A DNA stretch of 33,188 nucleotides from Bacteroidales bacterium (GTDB taxonomy: Bacteria > Bacteroidota > Bacteroidia > Bacteroidales > F082), in NCBI GenBank assembly GCA_024400195.1, contig JAKSNC010000025.1, positions 1 through 33,188 of the forward strand, in the 5' to 3' direction. The number at the start of each line of letters is the position of its first letter. Position 1 is the first letter of the stretch. This document shows positions 1-16,115 of the stretch, piece by piece. The notes under the pieces are model-generated. The model searched no databases. It saw only the letters and a program-made list of their open reading frames with translations, and was not told the origin of the DNA. The position numbers and the translations under genes are program-made.

Positions 1-54
1 GAACTGCGACAAGCTGTAGTCGCTGCCTTTAAGTATTTCAGAAATGGTGATCAT
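1..54 (-). CDS. Partial gene: N-terminus of a probable type I restriction-modification subunit
   Basis: An ATG at 54 on the minus strand opens a frame that runs off the window after 18 codons (MITISEILKGSDYSLSQF). It lies 17 bases downstream of the stop of the RloB-like gene and is probably in the same operon. The opening residues resemble, from memory, the N-termini of Bacteroidota type I R-M subunits (an N-6 DNA methylase or HsdR-like protein). RloA and RloB were named as R-linked ORFs found inside type I R-M loci, so the context fits. The identity rests on 18 residues plus context and is tentative; that a gene starts here is more certain than what it is. Confidence 0.45.
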   Translation of the reverse strand, partial: MITISEILKGSDYSLSQF

Positions 55-71
55 AATCAATAATAATCTAT

Positions 72-779
72 TTATCCTTCAATTTTATTCTTTATTTCTT
101 CATTTAACGTTTCGTCTTTGCCAATCAGTTGACGGACCAACTTGAACACCATCGTGCAGGGATTATGGGTGGCATAACGCTGGTTGGTGTATTCTCGGCT
201 TTGTGCTTCCGCAAACTTAATGGCATTATCCATAGAACCGAACTTTGTCATGATTTCAAAATTGCGCACGTCGTTTTTCGAATAGACGTATTTCGTATTT
301 GCCTTGAAATTGGGTGCTTTATTGACAGCATCGGAAATGGCTGTTTTGTAGTCTGTTCTGCCCATCCCCGTGGTTCTATTAACAAAATGATACAAATACC
401 ACAATTCAAAGGCCTCGTTACTCCATGCACAGCAAATGCCGTTCTTTTCAGCTTTAATGATGGCATTGTTGAATTTGTCATCAGAAAAAGAATCCTTGTC
501 GAAAACTGCCCAAACACGGTCGTAATTCCCTTTGTTTTTCAGGTCGATGGCTTTATCAACCACGCTGGTTGTGTTGGCACCCAATCCTTTGACTTCTATA
601 TCATAGACATTGGTTCCCCGATTGAATTTTTTGAAGGCTTCAAAATAATTCGGTTCGGTTTTGGTTCCTTCGCATACAATGAGGATTTTGCAGACGATTT
701 GTCTCGTTTGGCGTCGTTTTGCTTGTCTGGCATAACGACGTTCCAAAGCGGGTTCGAGCTTTATTCTGTTCGCAGGCAT
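72..779 (-). CDS. rloB: RloB-like (AbiLii-like) Toprim-related protein
   Basis: A 235-residue protein with RloB family hallmarks: a basic N-terminus, the ILIVCEGTKTEPNYF stretch at about residues 33-46, an acidic FDKDSF motif at 93-98, and NEAFELW at 121-127. The conserved acidic residues suggest a Toprim-like, metal-dependent nuclease fold. Family members are the second component of AbiL-type phage-defence pairs (AbiLi ATPase plus AbiLii) and are often found inside type I restriction loci. The gene starts 11 bases after the stop of the AAA ATPase gene, so the two are very likely co-transcribed, and the next gene at the window edge follows 17 bases later. The nuclease role is inferred from family knowledge; the family call is solid. 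Confidence 0.85.
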   Translation of the reverse strand: MPANRIKLEPALERRYARQAKRRQTRQIVCKILIVCEGTKTEPNYFEAFKKFNRGTNVYDIEVKGLGANTTSVVDKAIDLKNKGNYDRVWAVFDKDSFSDDKFNNAIIKAEKNGICCAWSNEAFELWYLYHFVNRTTGMGRTDYKTAISDAVNKAPNFKANTKYVYSKNDVRNFEIMTKFGSMDNAIKFAEAQSREYTNQRYATHNPCTMVFKLVRQLIGKDETLNEEIKNKIEG

Positions 780-790
780 CGTATCTTGTA

Positions 791-2059
791 TTATTCGTTA
801 ATGATATAAGGAATAGCACCGTATCGGCCGGCGATATAGTTTTTCTCATAGTTGGCATCGTTGCGTGGCTTGGTTCCATCGGGCAAAACAATGTCTGTCA
901 GACAGAACAAGTCTGTCTGCTCTGATTCGTTTTTTTCGGTGAACCAGATCTGGTCGCGTCGCAACATTTTGGTGGAAAGCAAATGTGTATCGTGCGTTGT
1001 AAAGATCAATTGCGCATTTTTCGGATTGGCGTTGGGGTTGCTGAACAACCGGATAATATGCTGTGAAATCAATGGATGCATTTTTGCATCCAGTTCGTCA
1101 ACAACAAGTACCGATCCTTTTTCTAACGTGTCGAAAATAGGGCCGGAAAGGTCAAATAATTTCCTTGTCCCAGATGATTCCATATCGTCAAAAGGGAATC
1201 GATCCGTACCACACGCCACACCTTTTGCATTGTAAATAGTGTGGATGGATTCCATTTCAATGCGCTTTTTGCCGGCCATCTCTCGACTGATCAATGGTAG
1301 AATCTCTTTGGAAACATTGTTGGGAATAATCACATCTTCTTCATGTGTTGTTATTTCATTGAATCCCAATTGTAAAGATTTAAAAAAAGCCAAAGCCTTT
1401 TGACTTGTTTCATTTCGTTGATGAAATTGAATCATGGAAAAGTCTCGATAATTTTGGTTGTTGAGACCAGAAACTACATGGAAATCCGAGCCGAACCAAG
1501 AAATCACTTGATTAGAAATTTCTCCGCCCAGTTGGGCACATAGGGAAAGGAACAATCTATTGTTGTTTGTTTTAGTTTCCAATCCGATCCCTTCAGGAAA
1601 TTTGTTGTCATCAAAAGCGATACCTTCTTCATTGCGAATAAACATAGGTTGCTCTTTGGATCGAGTTGTTGTCCTACGGAAAAGCCATTCGTCAATTACA
1701 TCATTCTTCTTATAAGCGAAGCCATAACGATAGCAATATTGATCTTTGAGAAATGTAACCTCAAACAAAGTTGGTCTATCATTCTCTTTCAAGAGCAAAA
1801 ATGGTGTGTACGGAAGATCATCTTGTGGGTTAAGCCGAACAGAAGTAAGCACGCAATATTGCATCACCTCCATTGCGTTAATTAGATTTGACTTGCCGCT
1901 GGAGTTGGCACCATAAACCGCAAGGGTTTTAAGTACATTATATGATAAATGCTGTGTCACATTTTCTTTTGCTTCTTCGCTTAGTTTTTGTGAACGCATG
2001 GAAAATGTTTTTTTACCGTAAAATGAACGAAAATTTTCAACTATAAAATCAAGTAACAT
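791..2059 (-). CDS. AAA15/AAA21-type ATPase, RloA/AbiLi-like
   Basis: A 422-residue SMC/ABC-like AAA ATPase of the overcoming-lysogenization-defect (OLD)-related group. It begins LLDFIVENFRSF, typical of AAA15/21 proteins. It has a Walker A motif GANSSGKS (about residues 50-57), a signature-like ESSGTRKLF (294-302), a Walker B strand VLVVDELD (about 317-324) followed by KMHP, and a histidine switch TTHDTH (354-359). No nuclease domain is visible in the protein. The effector is more likely the RloB-like partner encoded 11 bases downstream, as in AbiL and, by analogy, PARIS. Such ATPases sense phage proteins or DNA and then activate the partner; that role here is inferred. A candidate TATATTTGC -7 box lies 39 bases upstream. 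Confidence 0.85.
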   Translation of the reverse strand: MLLDFIVENFRSFYGKKTFSMRSQKLSEEAKENVTQHLSYNVLKTLAVYGANSSGKSNLINAMEVMQYCVLTSVRLNPQDDLPYTPFLLLKENDRPTLFEVTFLKDQYCYRYGFAYKKNDVIDEWLFRRTTTRSKEQPMFIRNEEGIAFDDNKFPEGIGLETKTNNNRLFLSLCAQLGGEISNQVISWFGSDFHVVSGLNNQNYRDFSMIQFHQRNETSQKALAFFKSLQLGFNEITTHEEDVIIPNNVSKEILPLISREMAGKKRIEMESIHTIYNAKGVACGTDRFPFDDMESSGTRKLFDLSGPIFDTLEKGSVLVVDELDAKMHPLISQHIIRLFSNPNANPKNAQLIFTTHDTHLLSTKMLRRDQIWFTEKNESEQTDLFCLTDIVLPDGTKPRNDANYEKNYIAGRYGAIPYIINE

Positions 2060-2230: not shown

Positions 2231-2428
2231 TCGTGTCTTGCTCTTTTTACGATAATGTCAAGTATCGCCACAAACCAATAAAACTTATAAGTTGCAGTAG
2301 TGTTGCTGAATATTCCCGCAAGGCAGGAAATCGGAAGCCGGTTGTTTTATGGTAAGGTCATAGCTTGTTTTATTTTGATATTCCCAATCGTTGTATGTTA
2401 GAATTGCATTTGTTAAATCATGTTTGTT

Positions 2429-2513
2429 TTACCCGTTGACATGAATCGGTAAAGATTTCTCCATTTTCTTTACCGATTGACGCTCGTCGGTAAAAGTTTT
2501 GTCATTTTCTTTA
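2429..2513 (-). repeat. Tandem 41-bp direct repeat encoding two 11-residue peptides
   Basis: Two adjacent copies with a period of 41 bases start directly at the end of the Fic gene. On the minus strand each has GTAAAGAAAATG followed by an 11-codon frame and TAA. Frame 1 (2470-2505) encodes MTKLLPTSVNR and frame 2 (2429-2464) encodes MEKSLPIHVNG. They share M, K, L, P, V and N at matching positions, and 24 of 36 coding bases are identical. A 10-bp perfect inverted repeat (2445-2454 with 2468-2477) also spans the junction and could fold as a hairpin. Whether the peptides are made is unknown. Confidence 0.6.
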
Positions 2514-3614
2514 CTTGCTGTCATTAGGTCTGAATGCATTTTGTAAAAGATTGAACAATTCATTGTTTACATAATAATTTTCTCTGCCCAATTTCAATTT
2601 TTGAAGGAAAGGATCCTCACATTCACACAACTGATTCAAATATGAAATAGCCGTGGGTTTACTTACTTTTAATTCTTGTTGCACAAAATCTATTTTTGTA
2701 TATGGATGCCTAAACAGATTGTTAATCAGGTCTTGGGAATACATCTTGGGAAACTCTTCCCTGATTCTGTGCTTGAAATTCATCATTAAAGCCTTGATTT
2801 GTTCAACCAACGAGGTTGTTGCAACAGAAGTTTCCTCTATCCCTTTCAGGATAAACAATGTCCAATCCTCCCAATTGTTATTATCGCGCACATCTTGTAG
2901 CAAATGATAATACCGACCCTTGTTGTGGGTAATATAGCGACTTAAATAAAGAACCGGCAAATCAAGCAAACCCTGTCGGACAAGATACAGAATATTGATA
3001 ATACGACCTGTGCGGCCATTGCCATCAGAAAAGGGATGAATGCTTTCAAACTGATGATGAATTATGGCAAGTTTAACCAACGGATCAAAATCACACAAGC
3101 TGTCATCATTGATAAATTTTTCCAAATTGTTCATATACGCGACAATTTCCTCGTAAGATTGAGGCGGTTCGTAAACGACCTCTTTCGTTTGCTCATTTTG
3201 GAGCGTAGTGCCTGGTGTTTGACGAAACCCTGCCGTGTTATTCTTAATTGCCTGATAAATTTTAATGATTGTATTACAAGTAAGCAGATTGGTTCCACTA
3301 ACCTCGTCAAATCCCAAATACAACGCTTGATTATAGTTCTCGACTTCTTTAGCCGCTGCAGAAACAAAATGAGCTACGGAAGAGACCTGAGCCCGATACA
3401 ATTCATCATGTGTAGTGATGATGCTTTCAATTTCGGAAGAGTCCTTGGACTCTTGTAAAGCCAATGTGTTAATCAAAATAGAAGGATTGGGCATTGACTT
3501 AATAGCACCTTTCAATTCGGCAAGACGACGATGGGAGGCAGCAGTCTGTTTCAATACAGCTTTTGTCTCTATTTCAAAGGGTGGTGGAAGCGTGGGTATA
3601 TTGTATCTGCTCAT
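2511..3614 (-). CDS. Fic family protein (probable AMP-transferase) with C-terminal winged helix
   Basis: A 367-residue protein with the standard Fic_N, Fic and C-terminal winged-helix layout. The catalytic loop HPFSDGNGRTGR is complete at residues 193-204, so AMP transfer from ATP to a hydroxyl group of a target protein is likely. The N-terminal SSEIESI at 59-65 matches the inhibitory-helix position with Glu63, although the usual following G or N is S; this suggests an autoinhibited class II enzyme. Residues about 300-355 look like a winged helix that may bind DNA. It lies 40 bases after the stop of the large ATPase gene and is probably the third gene of that operon. A 12-codon frame fills most of the gap. 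The target is unknown, and it may guard or regulate the neighbouring defence genes. Confidence 0.92.
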   Translation of the reverse strand: MSRYNIPTLPPPFEIETKAVLKQTAASHRRLAELKGAIKSMPNPSILINTLALQESKDSSEIESIITTHDELYRAQVSSVAHFVSAAAKEVENYNQALYLGFDEVSGTNLLTCNTIIKIYQAIKNNTAGFRQTPGTTLQNEQTKEVVYEPPQSYEEIVAYMNNLEKFINDDSLCDFDPLVKLAIIHHQFESIHPFSDGNGRTGRIINILYLVRQGLLDLPVLYLSRYITHNKGRYYHLLQDVRDNNNWEDWTLFILKGIEETSVATTSLVEQIKALMMNFKHRIREEFPKMYSQDLINNLFRHPYTKIDFVQQELKVSKPTAISYLNQLCECEDPFLQKLKLGRENYYVNNELFNLLQNAFRPNDSK

Positions 3615-3616
3615 GC

Positions 3617-3655
3617 TTATATGTTATTTTGTAAGTAATCAATATTTCCGTTCAT
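3617..3655 (-). CDS. Possible 12-codon coupled leader frame before the Fic gene
   Basis: The stop of the large ATPase gene overlaps an ATG (TAATG). This opens MNGNIDYLQNNI and then TAA, and the stop lies two bases before the Fic ATG. Such an arrangement could pass ribosomes from the ATPase gene to fic by translational coupling. It may also be chance in AT-rich sequence. Confidence 0.25.
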   Translation of the reverse strand: MNGNIDYLQNNI

Positions 3656-6600
3656 TACTTCATTTTTTTATTCAATATCTCCAAAAGCGTGCAAATGTCA
3701 ACGTTGTCATTTCCCGAAAGCATCTGGCTTATCCTTTGTTCCAACTCGGAAACACGCTTTTTGTCCTTTTCGGGCAAAATGTAGGTCTGTGTCCTGACAT
3801 TTGTTCCCGTATTCGACACCATGTCGAAAGAATAAGCCACATCGTTGTAGGCAACCGATTTCTTTGAAATGTCGGCATACTTTTCGCACTCGCGGAAAAG
3901 GTAAACCAAATCGTCAGCCAGCTTTTCTTCCTCCTCGTCGCGAAGCGATTCCAGCTTGTGTTCCAGAATCGGGTAACAGATGGACTGATACCACTGAGTC
4001 CTGTTGTCGTACTCTGTCATTACATGATGATAAAATTCCTTTTGCCGGACGGTCAGCAGCGTAAGTTTGACATTCGACAGCCTCTGCCTGATTTCAGCAA
4101 TATATTCGGTGTAATCAGCCGACGACAAATCTAATCCATCGACAAGACGGCTCTCGATGCGGTCGATGAGTTGCGTGTAGCATAAACGCAGTTCACGAAT
4201 GGCTTTCTGCATGACATTACCGTACTCTTCAATGTCCGTGTTTTGCTTCAGCTTCTTGGTAAAACCCAAAGCATCCGGCAAATCCTCGAAGAAGGCTTTC
4301 TCCGGGTCTTTCGCCGTTGCCAGCACATCGCGGAAACGCATGGTTGACTTGTGTGTGAATTTTCGTGTGTGTTTTGTGTAGTCGTTCAGTTGCTTGTAAA
4401 AAAACAGGAACGGCTTGATGGTCTCGATAAAACTCTGCGTGGTGATGCTGAATTCATCGCCTAATTTGACGAAGCGTCTGTATTGGTTGAAAAAGTCGAT
4501 TTTCACGTCATCCACTTCAAATGCCTTGATAGCATAGTCGGCAGGATGTTTTTGCAGCAAATCGAAAAACAGCATACCGACATTCGGGATATACGCACCG
4601 CTATTGACATCATACAAAGCGAAGTCCTGTCTCTTGATGAAAAGGAATGTCGGAATCCAGAAGTCAAGGAATCCATGTTTGAGCTTGAACGGCTGGACGG
4701 AAAGAATCTTAATCAGTTCCGATATTTTACGTTGTCTGCCAACCGTGCTTTTCAGGAAACGGACACTCTCGTTCCACAACGACGTGATGCCCTCGTTTGT
4801 CGGAGCATCGGCAAATCCGTTTTCAGTATGCAAGCCCGTGTTTTTGAGCAAGGAGTAGTAAATCGTCTTCTCGGGCGGGAACTTGTCTTTTTCAAAGCCC
4901 AAATCCTCTTCATTGTAGTGTTCAACAAGGGCATTCAAATAGTTTTTTCGTGCCGTCGAAATGGCTCCGCTCAGTTTGTGCCTGTTGAACAACTCGTTGA
5001 GCATGACTGGGGTTTCCGAATAGATCTCATCGCAAACTTCTGAAAGCAGTTTGTTAAAATCTTTGTGCAAGGAAACTTTTCGCTCTTCGCCTTTGAAAAC
5101 CCAAGTCACGCGGTTCTTGTAGGCAAACAGGTTGTCAATTATGGATTTATTCAGCAGCGATTCTTCATACTCTTTCAATTTCTGTATTTCGCTGTATGCA
5201 ACCCTGTCGGCATTTTTGTCAATCAAAACTTTAGTAAGTATATACTCGTATTTTTTGATGTTATGCAGATGGTCGATGATTTCCTCCGTGTTGTTGAAAT
5301 AAGCGTAGATTACAGCGTGTTCGGTATCGGCACTTGCCGCCTTGATTGCATTGAGTGCATTGTGTTCGGCAGAGAAAATCAGTTCGATATAACCGTCGGT
5401 ATCGCCCGAAGGAATCATATCGACGGCATTTTCACGGATTTCGTATTCAAAATATCGTGGAGTTCCCTTATGGTAATAATGCGCCTTTACGGGTGAAATA
5501 CGGTTGCTGATGAAGCAACGAAGGTCATCGATGAACGATACCGGCCTTGCCACAACAGCAGCAGCCTTTTGAATTTCTAATTCCAAATCAATGTCGGTTC
5601 CTTCAAAAAGCAACAGACGCTTCTTGTATTTTGCGTACCGCAAGATTTTGAATCCCTGCAACTTGCTGATGATAACTTCGGCATCTTCAACATCCATTGC
5701 CAGATGTGCATATTCCGCCATCTGAGAAGCATTCATCTCAAAACTTGCCATCCCGAACAGATTCAGTAACCCGATTGATTTCACAATTCGCACAGCATTT
5801 GCCAACTGTTCCCCATTGTCCCAGTCAAACCCTTCAACCCTTTCAATGGACACCCGCATGGAACTCCAACTCATGGAGTCCATATTGGCATCTTCCAAAT
5901 ATGAATAGAAATTGAAGACGATGTAGTCATATACATCGGCCAAATTGTAAGTCAAATTAGGTTTGGGTTTGAACTCGGCAAGCGAATTGGAGCCGCGTGC
6001 AAAAAGGAACGAAAAGAGCGAACGCTCATTCTGTCCGTACCGTTGTATGGCGGAGGTGATGGCAAAGGCTGAAAAAGAATCAAGCGGAGAAAGCTGTTGT
6101 GCTGTTTCGCAAGAAAAGGCCTTCGAAACGAATTTGGTTTCAAGTGCAAGTTGATAGAGCGATTTGATATTACCGTTGTCCGTTGGCTTGTCGTGCAACT
6201 GCTTTGAAGCCAAGAACAGAAGTTGCTCGACCGGCTCAACGAAAGTGATTTCCTTGAAACGGCCTTTTACTTTTGTCCATTCGTTTTTCTGGCTTTCGGT
6301 CAGATTTTTAGCGTATGCTCCGAAATTCTGATGCAAAGTGGTCAGCAGCAAGACATCGCGTGAAGGCACATTGACAAATTCGGCGAATTTCTGGAGGAAA
6401 TAAAGTTCCTGTTCCGGATTGTTCTTGGCGGCATGTTCCAGGACTTTCCCGAACTCGTCAATCACGATAAGCAGAAACTTGTTTTGCTCTTTCAAGTAAT
6501 TGCAATGCTTTTTCAGTTCATCGAGAATGCTTTGCGAATGTCCTTCAACGTTCAGTTTCCTTCCAAGCAAAACTGACAATTCTGTATAGTCACCGACAAT

Positions 6601-6873
6601 ATTCAGGATTTCAAAATCTTCCTTTTCCGTAAGGTTTTTTGGATTCAGCAATCTTTTTTCTTTTTTTCCGCTTTTCAAGTCTTCTTCTAAAGCCAGCAAG
6701 AATGACGATTTTCCGGTTCCGTATGTTCCGATAATCGTAAACGAATGAATGCCAGACCGATAATCGTCTATGATATTTTGTGCGGCCTTTCTTCCATTAG
6801 GCGTAACAATGTATTGAGCACCCTTTGGGAAACCATTTTCAATATTTGCCGATAAGCTAAATCCGTTATTCAT
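3655..6873 (-). CDS. Large P-loop ATPase of a DUF4007-associated defence module (SspC-like)
   Basis: A large protein of about 1,072 residues when started at the ATG at 6873. The open frame reaches back to 6945, but the inner ATG overlaps the upstream DUF4007 stop by eight bases (ATGAATAA) and is preceded by GGAAAAG, so I prefer it. With that start, the Walker A motif GTYGTGKSS is at about 49-57 and the Walker B stretch FLLIVIDEFG at about 133-142. A probable sensor strand, LLLTTLHQNF, follows. The remaining roughly 850 residues carry no motif I can name. Pairing with DUF4007 recalls SspB-SspC of phosphorothioation-based defence, where SspC is an ATPase, but the match is by architecture and context only. 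It could instead belong to an unnamed family. It probably powers remodelling or sensing of DNA. Confidence 0.75.
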   Translation of the reverse strand: MNNGFSLSANIENGFPKGAQYIVTPNGRKAAQNIIDDYRSGIHSFTIIGTYGTGKSSFLLALEEDLKSGKKEKRLLNPKNLTEKEDFEILNIVGDYTELSVLLGRKLNVEGHSQSILDELKKHCNYLKEQNKFLLIVIDEFGKVLEHAAKNNPEQELYFLQKFAEFVNVPSRDVLLLTTLHQNFGAYAKNLTESQKNEWTKVKGRFKEITFVEPVEQLLFLASKQLHDKPTDNGNIKSLYQLALETKFVSKAFSCETAQQLSPLDSFSAFAITSAIQRYGQNERSLFSFLFARGSNSLAEFKPKPNLTYNLADVYDYIVFNFYSYLEDANMDSMSWSSMRVSIERVEGFDWDNGEQLANAVRIVKSIGLLNLFGMASFEMNASQMAEYAHLAMDVEDAEVIISKLQGFKILRYAKYKKRLLLFEGTDIDLELEIQKAAAVVARPVSFIDDLRCFISNRISPVKAHYYHKGTPRYFEYEIRENAVDMIPSGDTDGYIELIFSAEHNALNAIKAASADTEHAVIYAYFNNTEEIIDHLHNIKKYEYILTKVLIDKNADRVAYSEIQKLKEYEESLLNKSIIDNLFAYKNRVTWVFKGEERKVSLHKDFNKLLSEVCDEIYSETPVMLNELFNRHKLSGAISTARKNYLNALVEHYNEEDLGFEKDKFPPEKTIYYSLLKNTGLHTENGFADAPTNEGITSLWNESVRFLKSTVGRQRKISELIKILSVQPFKLKHGFLDFWIPTFLFIKRQDFALYDVNSGAYIPNVGMLFFDLLQKHPADYAIKAFEVDDVKIDFFNQYRRFVKLGDEFSITTQSFIETIKPFLFFYKQLNDYTKHTRKFTHKSTMRFRDVLATAKDPEKAFFEDLPDALGFTKKLKQNTDIEEYGNVMQKAIRELRLCYTQLIDRIESRLVDGLDLSSADYTEYIAEIRQRLSNVKLTLLTVRQKEFYHHVMTEYDNRTQWYQSICYPILEHKLESLRDEEEEKLADDLVYLFRECEKYADISKKSVAYNDVAYSFDMVSNTGTNVRTQTYILPEKDKKRVSELEQRISQMLSGNDNVDICTLLEILNKKMK

Positions 6874-7744
6874 AATACTTTTCCAATACTTGTTTTGCAT
6901 CCATTTGTTTAATGAATTGTAACTGTCTGATTCCTGCCACATCACTATAACTCAGCGAATCTGAATAGGTTTCAGAAAGCAAATTCAACATGTCAATCAC
7001 CTCCAAATCGGTCATGCAGAAAATAAGCCCGACATCACGCAAAGTGTCGTATGAAACACTGTTGTCTGCATCTTCTTTTGTCAAAAGCAGAGCAAATAAA
7101 AACACTTCAGGAGTTACTTGCTTCTTGCCTTCAATGTTGAAGAAATATTTATCCTTGTTGTCTTCGGATTTATCTTTCTTTTCTGATTGTCGCAACAAAT
7201 CCAAATCCATCAATAAGGTTGAAAAATCTTCGTTTGATTGCGGGTTTCGGGGCAGGCAATAGTTCAAAAGCAAAACCCCGACATCCTTTCTGACAGTGTT
7301 TTCATTATACAGATTCTCTTTCCCAGCACTCTTCATCTTGCGCTTCACAAAACTGATAAGTTGTTCTCTGTCAAACAGCCTGCGTTCTTTCTGAAAATCG
7401 ACAAAAAACATTCTGTATAATGAGGCTTCTTCAGAATGAATCAAAAGGAAATGCATGAGCCATAACGTACCTAAATCTTCCAGATATGGATCTTTCCCTG
7501 TTTGGGTATCTAAAATATAATCTGCTATCCAAGCTGTTTCAGATTCATCACTCAACCCAAAGGCCTTGTACCAATAACGTACAGCCGAAACCATATTTTT
7601 GCCTACTCCCAAATCAACAACAGCAGTAGCAGCATTGAAATCTTTCCCTGCCTTTATAAAATCGTAGCCCTTCTTTAGCCAAAGGGTTTTGCATGGGAAC
7701 GACTCATGTCCGGAAAAAGTATATTTGCTATTGTAAGTTTCCAT
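6866..7744 (-). CDS. DUF4007 family protein (SspB-like)
   Basis: A 292-residue protein whose N-terminus has the DUF4007 signature: FSGHESFPCKTLWLKKGYDF at residues 10-29 and DLGVGKNMVSAVRYWYKAFG at 44-63. The second block is helix-turn-helix-like and could contact DNA. To my knowledge the domain occurs in SspB, described as the nickase of the Ssp DNA-phosphorothioation system, and in other phosphorothioation-linked loci. Here it is the first gene of an operon, followed with an eight-base overlap by a large ATPase and then by fic. No sulfur-transfer genes (SspA, SspD, DndA or DndC type) lie in the window, so the pair may be an orphan module or act on unmodified DNA. The family call is firm; the biochemical role is inferred. 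Confidence 0.8.
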   Translation of the reverse strand: METYNSKYTFSGHESFPCKTLWLKKGYDFIKAGKDFNAATAVVDLGVGKNMVSAVRYWYKAFGLSDESETAWIADYILDTQTGKDPYLEDLGTLWLMHFLLIHSEEASLYRMFFVDFQKERRLFDREQLISFVKRKMKSAGKENLYNENTVRKDVGVLLLNYCLPRNPQSNEDFSTLLMDLDLLRQSEKKDKSEDNKDKYFFNIEGKKQVTPEVFLFALLLTKEDADNSVSYDTLRDVGLIFCMTDLEVIDMLNLLSETYSDSLSYSDVAGIRQLQFIKQMDAKQVLEKYYE

Positions 7745-10675: not shown

Positions 10676-11677
10676 ATGAATAAAGTTTGTCACAAAAGCC
10701 CGTCAAATATCGCCATCGTTAAGTATTGGGGCAAACACGGCAACCAACTTCCTAACAATCCATCAATAAGCTTCACGCTGAGTAAATGCCATACCGAAAC
10801 AAGTATAAAATTCTGTGAATCAGATTGTTATAAATCTAATTTCTTCTTTGAAGGAAAGGAAAACGCCGCCTTCAAACTGAAGATCGACAAGTTTTTTCAG
10901 TCTGTGACAAATGATTTTCCTTTTCTGAACAATATCGAACTCGAAATAGAAAGCCGTAATTCATTCCCACATTCGTCGGGAATAGCATCTTCGGCCTCTT
11001 CGATGAGTGCACTCGTCCTTTGTCTTTTAGACATTGAGCGAACAATCAAAGCCGATTCACATCCGATTGATTTACAACGCGCTTCATATTATGCGCGGCT
11101 TGCATCCGGCTCCGCTTCCCGTTCCGTCTTTCCAAAAATGGCCTTGTGGGGCCTGATGCCGACTGTGCAGGGAAGCTCCGACGAATACGCCGTCTCCATC
11201 GAAGACATCATCCATCCTGTTTTCAAAACCTACCACGACACGATTCTGATTGTGAGTTCAAAGGAGAAAAGCGTCTCAAGCCGCGCCGGACATGCCTTGA
11301 TGGACACGCATCCACAAGCACAGGCCCGCTACGCCCAAGCACGCGAAAATACTCAAAGACTTCTTACTACGCTCAAACTCGGCGATATTGAAGATTTTAT
11401 CAAAATAACTGAAGATGAAGCACTTACACTTCATCATCTCATGGAGACATCGACTCCTCCTTTCGTCCTGATGGAAGAAAACACAAAGAAAATCATCAAC
11501 AAAATAAGACGTTTCAGACAAGATACGAAGATTCCGCTCTGTTTCACACTCGACGCCGGCCCTAATGTGCACTGCCTTTTCCCACAAAATTGCCAAAAAG
11601 AAGTTGACGATTTCATTATCAACGAGTTAAAGCAGTATTGCCACAACGGAACATTCATCTCCGACAGCGTAGAATAA
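10676..11677 (+). CDS. mvaD: Diphosphomevalonate decarboxylase
   Basis: A 333-residue GHMP-superfamily enzyme that converts mevalonate 5-diphosphate to isopentenyl diphosphate with ATP, the last committed step of the mevalonate pathway. The family blocks are present: SNIAIVKYWGKHG near the N-terminus (about 10-22), the phosphate-binding SSGIASSASSMSAL near residue 105, the ASGSASRS motif, and LDAGPNVH with the probable catalytic Asp293. The length matches bacterial homologues. The start lies three bases after the DUF5686 stop, and a mevalonate kinase gene follows after about a dozen bases, so this is an isoprenoid operon. It acts in the cytosol. Confidence 0.95.
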   Translation: MNKVCHKSPSNIAIVKYWGKHGNQLPNNPSISFTLSKCHTETSIKFCESDCYKSNFFFEGKENAAFKLKIDKFFQSVTNDFPFLNNIELEIESRNSFPHSSGIASSASSMSALVLCLLDIERTIKADSHPIDLQRASYYARLASGSASRSVFPKMALWGLMPTVQGSSDEYAVSIEDIIHPVFKTYHDTILIVSSKEKSVSSRAGHALMDTHPQAQARYAQARENTQRLLTTLKLGDIEDFIKITEDEALTLHHLMETSTPPFVLMEENTKKIINKIRRFRQDTKIPLCFTLDAGPNVHCLFPQNCQKEVDDFIINELKQYCHNGTFISDSVE

Positions 11678-11690
11678 TTTTTAAGTGAAG

Positions 11691-12578
11691 ATGAAATCAA
11701 AAAAATACAACGGAAAAGTTATTCTCTTCGGAGAATATTCGATGATTTTTGGTGCCGACGCCCTGCTTGTGCCTTACCGCGACACTTCGGCTGAATGGGA
11801 TTTCTGCTCGAAAAACCCTGATTATAAGATGGTTAACTCTAACAGAAACCTCAATAAGTTTCTTTCTTATCTGAAGGAAAATGATTTTGACGACATTTTG
11901 GAACTATCATCTTTCGAAGAAGATATAAAATCGGGACTATATTTGAAATCGGATATTCCATCAGGTTACGGACTTGGCAGTTCGGGTGCTTTGGTGGCCG
12001 CCGTTTATGACCATTACGGAAAGGATAACAACCATAATCCATTGGTTCTCAAGTCGATTTTTGCCAAAATGGAAAACTGTTTTCATAGTAGCAGTTCCGG
12101 CAACGATCCACTTCAATGCTATTTCGGACAACCTTTTGTGATTTCAAAAGACGGATTTAAGTTGTTGGACAACAATTTTCTCAATCCGGAAATAAAGGTT
12201 TTTCTGATTGACAGCGGGATCAAAAGCACGACGGGCCCGCTTGTATCGTATTTCAAGGAATGCAGAAACGATGCAAAATACATGAATATATTTGAAAATG
12301 AATATGTTCCGTGTGTAAAAAAATGTATTGACACGACGATTCATAGTGATACGGACGCTTTTTTCGCGGCTGTGGGTGAACTGTCGGATTTACAGACGCG
12401 ACTGCTCAAACCGATGATTCCGGAGAGTATCATGCCGTTGTTCGCCGCCGCCCGCAACGACAGACGTTTCTGTATTAAGATTTCGGGGTCGGGCGGCGGC
12501 GGCTTCTTCATCGCCTTCACCAAAGACGAAAGCATTGATATTCAAGATAAATTTCAAGTCAAAAAATTATTAAACTAA
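11691..12578 (+). CDS. mvk: Mevalonate kinase (GHMP family)
   Basis: A 295-residue GHMP kinase that probably phosphorylates mevalonate. It opens with KVILFGEYSMIFGADALLVP, has the ATP-binding loop PSGYGLGSSGALVAA near residue 90-104, a catalytic-region SSSSGNDPLQCYFG, and the C-terminal glycine-rich ISGSGGGGFF. An in-frame GTG at 11685 would add two residues; I prefer the ATG at 11691. Its position directly after diphosphomevalonate decarboxylase supports the mevalonate role over other GHMP substrates. The protein is diverged from textbook mevalonate kinases, so it could alternatively be the phosphomevalonate kinase, with the GYDIA-family kinase on the other strand filling the remaining step. 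Confidence 0.8.
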   Translation: MKSKKYNGKVILFGEYSMIFGADALLVPYRDTSAEWDFCSKNPDYKMVNSNRNLNKFLSYLKENDFDDILELSSFEEDIKSGLYLKSDIPSGYGLGSSGALVAAVYDHYGKDNNHNPLVLKSIFAKMENCFHSSSSGNDPLQCYFGQPFVISKDGFKLLDNNFLNPEIKVFLIDSGIKSTTGPLVSYFKECRNDAKYMNIFENEYVPCVKKCIDTTIHSDTDAFFAAVGELSDLQTRLLKPMIPESIMPLFAAARNDRRFCIKISGSGGGGFFIAFTKDESIDIQDKFQVKKLLN

Positions 12579-14795: not shown

Positions 14796-16115
14796 CTATT
14801 TGGTTTTCAAGTTTTTAAGGAACTCTTCGACAGCAGAATGACTCACGACGATATTTTTAAAGTGCTCTGTCGCCGCGATTTTCTCATCATCGGTTGCGCC
14901 GAGGGAATTTAAGATATTTGTCAGGTGCATCTTCATGTGCCCTTGTTGTATTCCTTTAGTTATCAATGATTTAACTGCGGAATAATTATTTGCAAGTCCC
15001 ATTGTAGCCGCAATTGACATAAGTTCCGGGGCGGTAGGGTTGCCCAAAAGTTCGAGTGATTCTTTTGCCAAAGGATGCAGGCTCGTCAATCCTCCGACGG
15101 TTCCGAGGGCCATTGGGACTTCCACTGCGAAACTGAAAATGCCGTCTTTTATCTCCGCTGTTGAGAGGCTTTCGTAGTGTCCGTTGCGGGCGGCGTATGA
15201 ATGTCCCGCTGCTTCGACTGCACGGAAGTCGTTTCCAGTTGCAATCACGACGGCGTCGATACCGTTGTAGATGCCTTTGTTGTGCGTCACGGCGCGGTAA
15301 GTGTCAATATGTGCAATATCAACGGCTTTCTTAAATTTGACTGCAAAAGCCTGACCGTCAAGATGTTCGTCTATTCCGTCAAGTTGTTCGACAGGGCATT
15401 CAACCCAGACTTTCACGCGGCATTCGGGAGTATAGTTCGACAGAATGCTCATCACGATTTCGATGTTGTCTGAAAACATATCGCGGAGGCTGTCGGCGAA
15501 GGCTTCGAGGCAGGAATTTATGAAGTTGGCGCCCATAGAGTCGCAAGTGTAGAAGGAGACGCGCAGTTGATAATAATCTGGTATTTCATTATGAAAATCA
15601 ACAAGTTCTATATCATGAACTCCGCCGCCGCGCTGCTCCATCTTCTTGGTAAGGCCGGCGGTGTCGCGTAAGAGTCTGTCCTTTATCATGGGCATCATCT
15701 CACGCAGCGCGGCGGGCTCACCCTTCCAACAAAAATGAACCTGTCCTATCTTCTTAGTATCAATAACTTCGGTGTGAAAACCGCCCCTGACGCCCCAGAA
15801 TTTGACAGCCGCAGAAGCCGCCGCAACAACGGAACTCTCCTCAATGACCATCGGGACGACATAGTTGCGGTTGTTTATCAGTACGTTTGGCGATATGCCG
15901 TAAGGAATTGGAAAATTGGAGATTGTGTTTTCGCTGAACTCGTCGAAAGTCTTTTGACGTTTCGTGTCGTTAAACCAAAAACTCTTGAGCAGGCTCACGA
16001 ATTCACCAGGATTCTCAATACACTCGGCCACGGCTTTCAGCTTATCCTCCTTGAGAAGTTTGCTGAAACCCTGTTTTATGCGGTCGCGACGGCGCATCGG
16101 GGATTCTTCTTCCAT
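14796..16115 (-). CDS. mvaA: Hydroxymethylglutaryl-CoA reductase, class II
   Basis: A 439-residue cytosolic class II enzyme that reduces HMG-CoA to mevalonate. The catalytic set is recognisable: EESSVVAAAS with Glu92/93, THNKGIYNGID with Lys280, GNDFRAVEAA with Asp296, and a late GHMKMH with His395. There is no membrane anchor. The class was first described in degradative organisms, but many bacteria use it for synthesis, and its operon with a GYDIA kinase supports synthesis here. The start at 16115 is favoured by an upstream AAAGGAAAG stretch. It begins 23 bases after the topA stop. Confidence 0.95.
   Translation of the reverse strand: MEEESPMRRRDRIKQGFSKLLKEDKLKAVAECIENPGEFVSLLKSFWFNDTKRQKTFDEFSENTISNFPIPYGISPNVLINNRNYVVPMVIEESSVVAAASAAVKFWGVRGGFHTEVIDTKKIGQVHFCWKGEPAALREMMPMIKDRLLRDTAGLTKKMEQRGGGVHDIELVDFHNEIPDYYQLRVSFYTCDSMGANFINSCLEAFADSLRDMFSDNIEIVMSILSNYTPECRVKVWVECPVEQLDGIDEHLDGQAFAVKFKKAVDIAHIDTYRAVTHNKGIYNGIDAVVIATGNDFRAVEAAGHSYAARNGHYESLSTAEIKDGIFSFAVEVPMALGTVGGLTSLHPLAKESLELLGNPTAPELMSIAATMGLANNYSAVKSLITKGIQQGHMKMHLTNILNSLGATDDEKIAATEHFKNIVVSHSAVEEFLKNLKTK

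What the first reader, a model, noticed from the sequence alone, without database searches (positions are those of the whole stretch)
2511..7744. DUF4007 - large ATPase - Fic operon without sulfur-transfer genes
Three genes in one direction with an 8-base overlap and a 40-base gap, under one candidate promoter, combine an SspB-like DUF4007 protein, a roughly 1,072-residue ATPase and a complete Fic AMP-transferase. In known phosphorothioation defence (Ssp, Dnd) the DUF4007 protein works with a cysteine desulfurase and a PAPS-reductase-like enzyme. None is in the window, and a Fic enzyme takes the place where an effector would be expected. This could be a defence system whose effector modifies host proteins by AMPylation.
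Basis: partly seen in the sequence, partly recalled or inferred. Interest (0 to 1): 0.72.

Follow-up and report, generated by a model that had tools for sequence, protein, structure and literature searches.

The report
Fic gene lodged in Ssp operon
A gene for a known type of anti-phage enzyme (a SoFic-like Fic) sits inside the remains of a known DNA-sulfur-marking defence operon (Ssp) whose sulfur-transfer gene was not found, at a spot where related bacteria carry other defence-type genes; it is most likely a lodger there and not part of a new three-gene defence system.

Summary
The genes are as described: DUF4007/SspB 7744-6866, BrxC-like ATPase/SspC 6873-3655, SoFic-type Fic 3614-2511, minus strand. 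The three-gene-system reading fails. After sspC, relatives carry sspD in 56 of 74 scorable loci and fic in 0 of 74; fic is also next in 0 of 20 phylum-draw, 0 of 12 genus and 0 of 15 order-draw loci. The place between sspC and sspD is a cargo slot: 16 of 74 loci hold other defence-type genes there, and in 4 of these 16 sspD is missing and an HNH gene follows. The window fits that variant: a broken start of that HNH gene (2361-2210) follows fic. The window's SspC nests among SspD-bearing relatives. The assembled genome, about 90% complete, gave no PAPS-reductase or sspD match. None of 31 strong Fic loci lies beside SspB/SspC. Best reading: an ssp operon that lost sspD, carrying an autonomous SoFic-type gene, its HNH gene later cut by an AbiL-like AAA/RloB pair. 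SspBC steering Fic is not excluded (about 7%).

The parts
6866..7744 (-). sspB (DUF4007), intact
   Evidence: Pfam PF13182 3.1e-72; PADLOC SspB 2e-87; 71-80% identical to DUF4007 of L033 and L034, 71-79% to L048-L052 and L074
3655..6873 (-). sspC (BrxC/Orc-Cdc6-like ATPase, 1072 aa), intact; Walker A GTYGTGKSS and Walker B VIDEFGK kept
   Evidence: PADLOC SspC E=0; alignment A1; tree; dN 0.096 to L074 and 0.110 to L049, dS saturated
2511..3614 (-). fic: SoFic-type Fic AMP-transferase, motif HPFSDGNGRTGR from His193; N-terminal SSEIES (residues 59-64) at the place of the inhibitory motif
   Evidence: solved SoFic structures match, best 9vjc_A 5.5e-82
2420..2515 (-). hairpin-forming stretch at and after the fic stop (possible transcript end or mRNA 3' structure)
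   Evidence: MFE -24.5 kcal/mol, z -4.54 against 200 shuffles; one copy in the assembled genome
2210..2361 (-). broken remnant of the first ~50 codons of the HNH nuclease gene found in related ssp loci; stop near codon 5 and a frame change
   Evidence: tblastn with four HNH queries: 3.1e-13 (L079), 1.7e-12 (L088), 1.9e-9 (L025), not significant with the distant L120 (E 1.1); L088 58.5 bits against a maximum of 27.7 in 100 resampled windows with the same filter setting (24.6 in 60 with the default filter)
791..2059 (-). AAA_21 ATPase (AbiLi-like), first gene of a neighbouring two-gene defence-type pair; it starts after the HNH truncation
   Evidence: Pfam AAA_21 3.7e-33; PADLOC AbiLi 9.9e-94
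72..779 (-). RloB-like gene (AbiLii-like), second gene of that pair
   Evidence: Pfam RloB 3.3e-43; PADLOC AbiLii 1e-28
1..54 (-). first 18 codons of a possible further gene in the same direction, cut by the contig end
   Evidence: sequence; the first 120 bases of the contig have only weak second matches in the genome, best E 0.1

Best explanation
This is the remnant of a Bacteroidales ssp (single-strand DNA phosphorothioation) operon. sspB and sspC are intact, sspD is gone from its place, and a stand-alone SoFic-type Fic gene is lodged in the cargo slot directly after sspC, followed by the truncated HNH nuclease gene of the old locus and then by an AbiL-like AAA/RloB pair. Mechanism (inferred): fic is transcribed with the ssp genes but works alone. 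It is a self-inhibited AMP-transferase that is released during phage infection and AMPylates host proteins to stop growth (abortive infection), as reported for SoFic. The SspB/SspC pair cannot make phosphorothioate without SspD; it is either idle or still binds DNA. Shown: gene content, intactness, nested phylogeny, no sspD in its place, HNH remnant, no conserved fic partnership in the loci examined. Inferred: co-transcription, the activity of Fic, the idleness of SspBC.
For: Gene after sspC among 80 relatives from genome contigs: 6 set aside because sspC runs off the contig (L054, L093, L096) or the contig ends within 183 bases after it (L076, L085, L127); of the other 74, sspD next in 56, other cargo in 16, an unassigned ORF then sspD in 2, fic in 0. 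Phylum draw: 20 loci, sspD next in 19, fic in 0. Genus: 12 loci, sspD next in 9, cargo in 3, fic in 0. Order draw: 15 scorable loci, sspD next in 15. Cargo differs between closely related SspC proteins (L056/L057/L088/L114; L061/L064/L095; L065/L075; tree). sspD-less loci in which cargo is followed by HNH: L069, L078, L088, L097; the window has that order with a broken HNH. In the 8-row set that holds the window's SspC (support 99), six of the other seven loci carry sspD and the seventh, L048, ends too early to tell. Fic matches SoFic along nearly its whole length; 0 of 31 strong Fic loci with held DNA have SspB/SspC within up to 1.5 kb.
Against: The contig ends 71 bases after RloB and the genome is 89.67% complete, so an sspD further downstream or in the missing part cannot be ruled out. 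sspB and sspC are intact, and sspC shows no clear relaxation: dN 0.096-0.110 to L074 and L049 against 0.085 between those two, but dS is saturated and the window's end branch (0.14) is longer than L074's (0.078). NCBIfam's SoFic equivalog scores 374.7 bits, below its 550-bit cut-off. Only the nearest relatives were surveyed in depth (80 of 268 found).
Confidence: 0.8

Rival explanations
1. A genuine three-gene system: SspB/SspC scan DNA and, on phage infection, switch on Fic, which AMPylates host proteins; no DNA phosphorothioation is involved.
For: Three intact genes in one direction with tight spacing; no sspD or PAPS-reductase match in the assembled genome; sspC apparently still constrained.
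Against: fic next to sspC in 0 of 74, 0 of 12 and 0 of 15 and 0 of 20 other loci; no co-occurrence beyond chance in 393 genomes; 0 of 31 strong Fic loci near SspB/SspC; the HNH remnant shows a rearranged, decaying locus.
Confidence: 0.07
2. A complete sspBCD operon with fic (and the AAA/RloB pair) inserted between sspC and sspD; sspD lies beyond the contig end in unassembled sequence.
For: The contig ends 71 bases past RloB; in 11 of 16 cargo-bearing loci sspD does follow the cargo.
Against: No sspD fragment found in the assembly; the HNH remnant lies directly after fic, as in the sspD-less loci L069, L078, L088 and L097, whereas HNH comes after sspD in four loci with both genes (L079, L090, L095, L120). 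One exception is known: in L221 HNH-HIT precedes sspD, in place of most of sspC.
Confidence: 0.1
3. An assembly artefact joins fic or the AAA/RloB pair to sspBC.
For: The genome is a draft in 54 contigs with 89.67% completeness.
Against: The sspC-cargo-HNH order reproduces one seen in four other loci; the hairpin between fic and the HNH remnant is single copy. Other possible repeats at the junctions and read coverage were not examined.
Confidence: 0.03

Closest known systems
SspBCD(-SspE / -SspFGH) DNA phosphorothioation defence
   Same: DUF4007 SspB and the Orc/Cdc6-like SspC are family members, in the usual order
   Different: sspD not found; no SspE match among the five proteins scanned with PADLOC
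SoFic (Sofic) single-gene anti-phage Fic
   Same: All three domains, catalytic motif, and the Glu of the N-terminal inhibitory motif (SSEIES; the two solved relatives shown read S-S-x-I-E-N)
   Different: Sits in an ssp operon; Ser after the Glu; below NCBIfam's equivalog cut-off; no AS1-like partner established
Defence genes embedded in other defence operons (PADLOC PDC/HEC candidates, 'guilt by embedding')
   Same: A single-gene defence module sits inside the operon of a multi-gene system
   Different: Here the host operon is ssp and its own sspD is missing; I saw the embedding work only as described and cited in passages of PMC12988326
Type-4 BREX and the HerA/FtsK BRC system (DUF4007 plus BrxC-like ATPase)
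   Same: Share DUF4007 and a BrxC-type ATPase (passages of PMC12839542)
   Different: No PglZ, BrxL or HerA match among the 15 window proteins scanned with Pfam

Membership tests
SspBCD phosphorothioation system | SspB (DUF4007) | tested here: met
   SspB 2e-87
SspBCD phosphorothioation system | SspC ATPase with Walker motifs | tested here: met
SspBCD phosphorothioation system | SspD (PAPS-reductase-like sulfurtransferase) | tested here: not met
   no match in the window or in the assembled genome; genome 89.67% complete
SspBCD phosphorothioation system | phosphorothioate in DNA | not testable with these tools
   needs mass spectrometry on DNA of the organism
SspBCD phosphorothioation system | cysteine desulfurase SspA or IscS | not tested
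   can be supplied by an IscS elsewhere in the genome (passages of PMC8092258); I did not search for one
SoFic | Fic_N + Fic + SoFic-like C-terminal domains | tested here: met
SoFic | catalytic motif HxFx(D/E)GNGRxxR | tested here: met
   HPFSDGNGRTGR at 193; motif formula recalled
SoFic | NCBIfam equivalog NF046030 over its cut-off | tested here: not met
   374.7 bits, cut-off 550
SoFic | phage protection by AMPylation | not testable with these tools
   experiment needed
   0 of 74, 0 of 12, 0 of 15 and 0 of 20
Type-4 BREX | PglZ and BrxL with the DUF4007/BrxC genes | tested here: not met
   no such match among the 15 window proteins scanned with Pfam; the other window ORFs and the rest of the genome were not scanned for them

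The most novel reading that the evidence does not exclude
An SspB/SspC pair freed from DNA sulfur marking has been recruited as a DNA-scanning sensor that controls an embedded Fic toxin, giving a modification-free defence whose effector AMPylates host proteins. More broadly, Bacteroidales ssp operons may keep a slot after sspC through which one sensor pair is joined to interchangeable effectors (Fic, DUF1016 nuclease, AAA pairs, RhuM, DUF3990), sspD being dispensable once an effector is in place.
Probability: 0.07. Interest if true: 0.72.

Novelty: new member of a known kind. Interest (0 to 1): 0.3.

Why it matters
It shows that 'DUF4007 - ATPase - Fic' is here a rearranged ssp locus and not a new system. 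It also brings out a pattern that I did not find in the papers searched (listings): in Bacteroidales a slot between sspC and sspD takes up different defence-type genes, and sspD is missing from several such loci. That matters for annotation, since SspB/SspC hits do not imply phosphorothioation, and it offers natural sspD-less sspBC loci in which to ask whether SspBC does anything without sulfur transfer.

Tried and rejected
Type-4 BREX/BRC membership: no PglZ, BrxL or HerA match among the 15 window proteins scanned. A second sspD or a dndC elsewhere in the genome: no match. An overlapping contig to extend past the contig end: only weak matches, best E 0.1. The hairpin after fic as a repeated element: single copy. 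Promoter claims: at chance for sigma-70; no TTTG/TAnnTTTG pair upstream of sspB (one search scanned the -7 part alone in L001, 7 matches against 3.3 expected, not interpreted). A test for relaxed selection on sspC: inconclusive, dS saturated. A 44-aa ORF (2563-2429, minus) that starts inside fic and runs over the hairpin is about as long as the 47-aa AS1 antitoxin of E. coli Sofic, but no homology was tested, so I do not claim it. Seven bases after the sspC stop in the window (ATGAACG) match the start of some sspD genes (compare L072); too short to count. Viral contigs: 3 loci found; L229 and L230 have sspD next, L231 (25% identity) was not examined. Plasmids: 67 records match, best 35.6% identity; neighbours not examined. 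Of the 25 other genomes ringing in the phylum draw I fetched 20. The tree used the quick method, and the fork next to the window is weakly resolved.
Full report
What is there. The window is a whole contig (G000:C18, 33,188 bases) of a 1.84-Mb draft genome in 54 contigs, 89.67% complete (contig length). On its minus strand lie DUF4007/SspB (7744-6866), SspC (6873-3655), Fic (3614-2511), an AAA_21 ATPase (2059-791) and a RloB gene (779-72); the contig then ends, 18 codons into a possible further gene. The candidate promoter is not better than chance.

What the pair is. PADLOC names the first two proteins SspB (2e-87) and SspC (E=0). In a quick-method tree of 94 SspC rows the window's protein sits in an 8-row set (support 99) with L034, L048, L049, L050, L051, L052 and L074; the nearest, L074, is 84% identical. 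Six of these seven carry sspD; L048's contig ends before it could be seen. It is thus a late member of the ssp family and not a separate branch. The forks inside that set are weakly resolved.

What follows sspC in relatives. A scan of genome contigs found 268 relatives, of which the best 80 were kept. In 3 of these sspC runs off the contig and in 3 the contig ends within 183 bases after it; of the other 74, sspD comes next in 56, other cargo in 16, an unassigned ORF followed by sspD in 2, and fic in none. In the order draw DUF4007 occurs in 24 of 393 genomes; I fetched all 23 others, 15 have an sspC 3' end that could be scored, and sspD is next in all 15. One more, L025, has a split sspC followed by sspD. 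In the genus 17 of 99 genomes, the own one included, have an SspC match; of 12 near-complete ones besides the window, sspD is next in 9 and cargo in 3; the other four are fragments. In the phylum draw 26 of 395 genomes ring, the own one included; I fetched 20 of the 25 others, and sspD is next in 19 (my gene caller had hidden sspD in L261, and searches corrected this). The last, L273, has sspC cut after about 675 residues by an HNH-HIT pair.

A cargo slot. The 16 loci with cargo carry DUF1016/YhcG-like nucleases (5: L050, L062, L074, L078, L097), AAA ATPases with or without a ~230-aa partner (6: L048, L056, L064, L069, L088, L114; in L048 only the start is on the contig), RhuM (2: L058, L060) or a DUF3990-bearing trio of small genes (3: L075, L090, L095; the two latter checked). 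Pfam and PADLOC were run on representatives only; PADLOC files these as candidate defence families (PDC-S02, M31, S05, M13). Closely related SspC proteins carry different cargo or none (L056, L057, L088, L114; L061, L064, L095; L065, L075), so the slot turns over quickly. In L050 and L074 cargo overlaps sspC and sspD by stop-start codons. In four of the 16 (L069, L078, L088, L097) sspD is missing from the held flank and the HNH gene follows the cargo, with HIT after it in three; L078's contig ends inside HNH. The genomes of L069, L078 and L088 gave no sspD match; that of L097 has one on another contig. Their completeness is not known to me.

The window belongs to that variant. Between fic and the AAA gene, at 2361-2210, lies the start of the same HNH gene with an early stop and a frame change, cut off after about 50 codons. 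With the L088 query the score is 58.5 bits, against at most 27.7 in 100 resampled windows; with L025 it is 50.1 against 25.0; the distant L120 query does not see it (20.8 bits, 29.3 in resampled windows). The order sspB-sspC-cargo-HNH is therefore that of L069, L078, L088 and L097, with fic as cargo. This argues that sspD was lost and not pushed beyond the contig end; a complete genome is needed to be sure.

What the Fic is. It has Fic_N, Fic and SoFic-like C-terminal domains, matches PADLOC SoFic at 5.6e-116 and eight distinct sequences of solved SoFic-type structures at 5.5e-82 to 1.1e-73, but stays under NCBIfam's equivalog cut-off. The catalytic motif and the Glu of the inhibitory motif are present. 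SoFic is described as a single-gene anti-phage protein that is toxic by AMPylation and acts by abortive infection (PMC12249575; abstract, introduction and section 2.1 seen). Strong homologues are common in the order (102 of 393 genomes at E up to 1e-60). DNA was held for 58 Fic loci, 31 of them strong (over 250 bits); none of the 31 has SspB/SspC within its flanks of up to 1.5 kb, and the one DUF4007 match among the 58 lies near a weak, different Fic (L146). Fic and DUF4007 occur together in 6 of 393 genomes, 6.2 expected; in the five besides the window they are on different contigs.

How it most likely works. Fic is an independent, self-inhibited AMP-transferase borne by the ssp operon; SspBC cannot phosphorothioate without SspD (inference from the known roles of the genes). 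That SspBC gates Fic is possible but has no comparative support. sspC shows no clear relaxation of constraint, so a remaining role for SspBC is open.

Literature. Passages of PMC12839542 place DUF4007 and BrxC-like ATPases in type-4 BREX and in a HerA-linked system; 'Fic' does not occur in its main text. Passages of PMC10853773: no 'Fic' in the main text. Passages of PMC8092258 give sspBCD as the typical three-gene operon. Passages of PMC7464106 were seen and add nothing on this arrangement. Embedded defence genes are a known idea, seen here through passages of PMC12988326, which cite a Payne et al. 2024 preprint; I did not see the preprint. Searches for Fic with SspB/SspC, for SspBCD and for insertions in ssp gave nothing on this arrangement in their listings.

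Noticed in passing
L069:13271-15207, L088:13115-15036, L097:7247-9168, L221:3769-5690, L273:4049-6021, L044:11886-13858: A two-gene HNH - methyltransferase/HIT cassette recurs in ssp loci and often sits where core genes were: after cargo with sspD missing (L069, L088, L097), after the first 73 codons of sspC and before an intact sspD (L221), after about 675 residues of sspC (L273), or after a DUF4007 remnant and two unidentified genes (L044). It looks like a module that displaces ssp core genes.
   Followed up: partly
L222:1120-2683 and L223:4916-6494: Two genomes of the window's genus keep only about the first 56 codons of sspB, the last 54 of sspC, an intact DUF1016 cargo gene and the first 27-32 codons of sspD at this place: the cargo outlived the operon that carried it.
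   Followed up: partly
L088:5174-6493, L121:5222-6538, L218:2707-4065: A different, longer Fic-domain protein (438-452 aa, 29-31% identity over 153-174 residues) lies upstream of sspB in three loci.
   Followed up: no
window 2420-2515, minus: Strong hairpin (z -4.54) at the fic stop, made of repeated TTTACCGA-type units; single copy in the assembled genome.
   Followed up: partly
window 10676-12578 and 14796-16115: Beyond the island the contig carries genes that look like the mevalonate pathway (diphosphomevalonate decarboxylase-like, GHMP kinase, HMG-CoA reductase), so the ssp remnant borders ordinary chromosomal genes.
   Followed up: no
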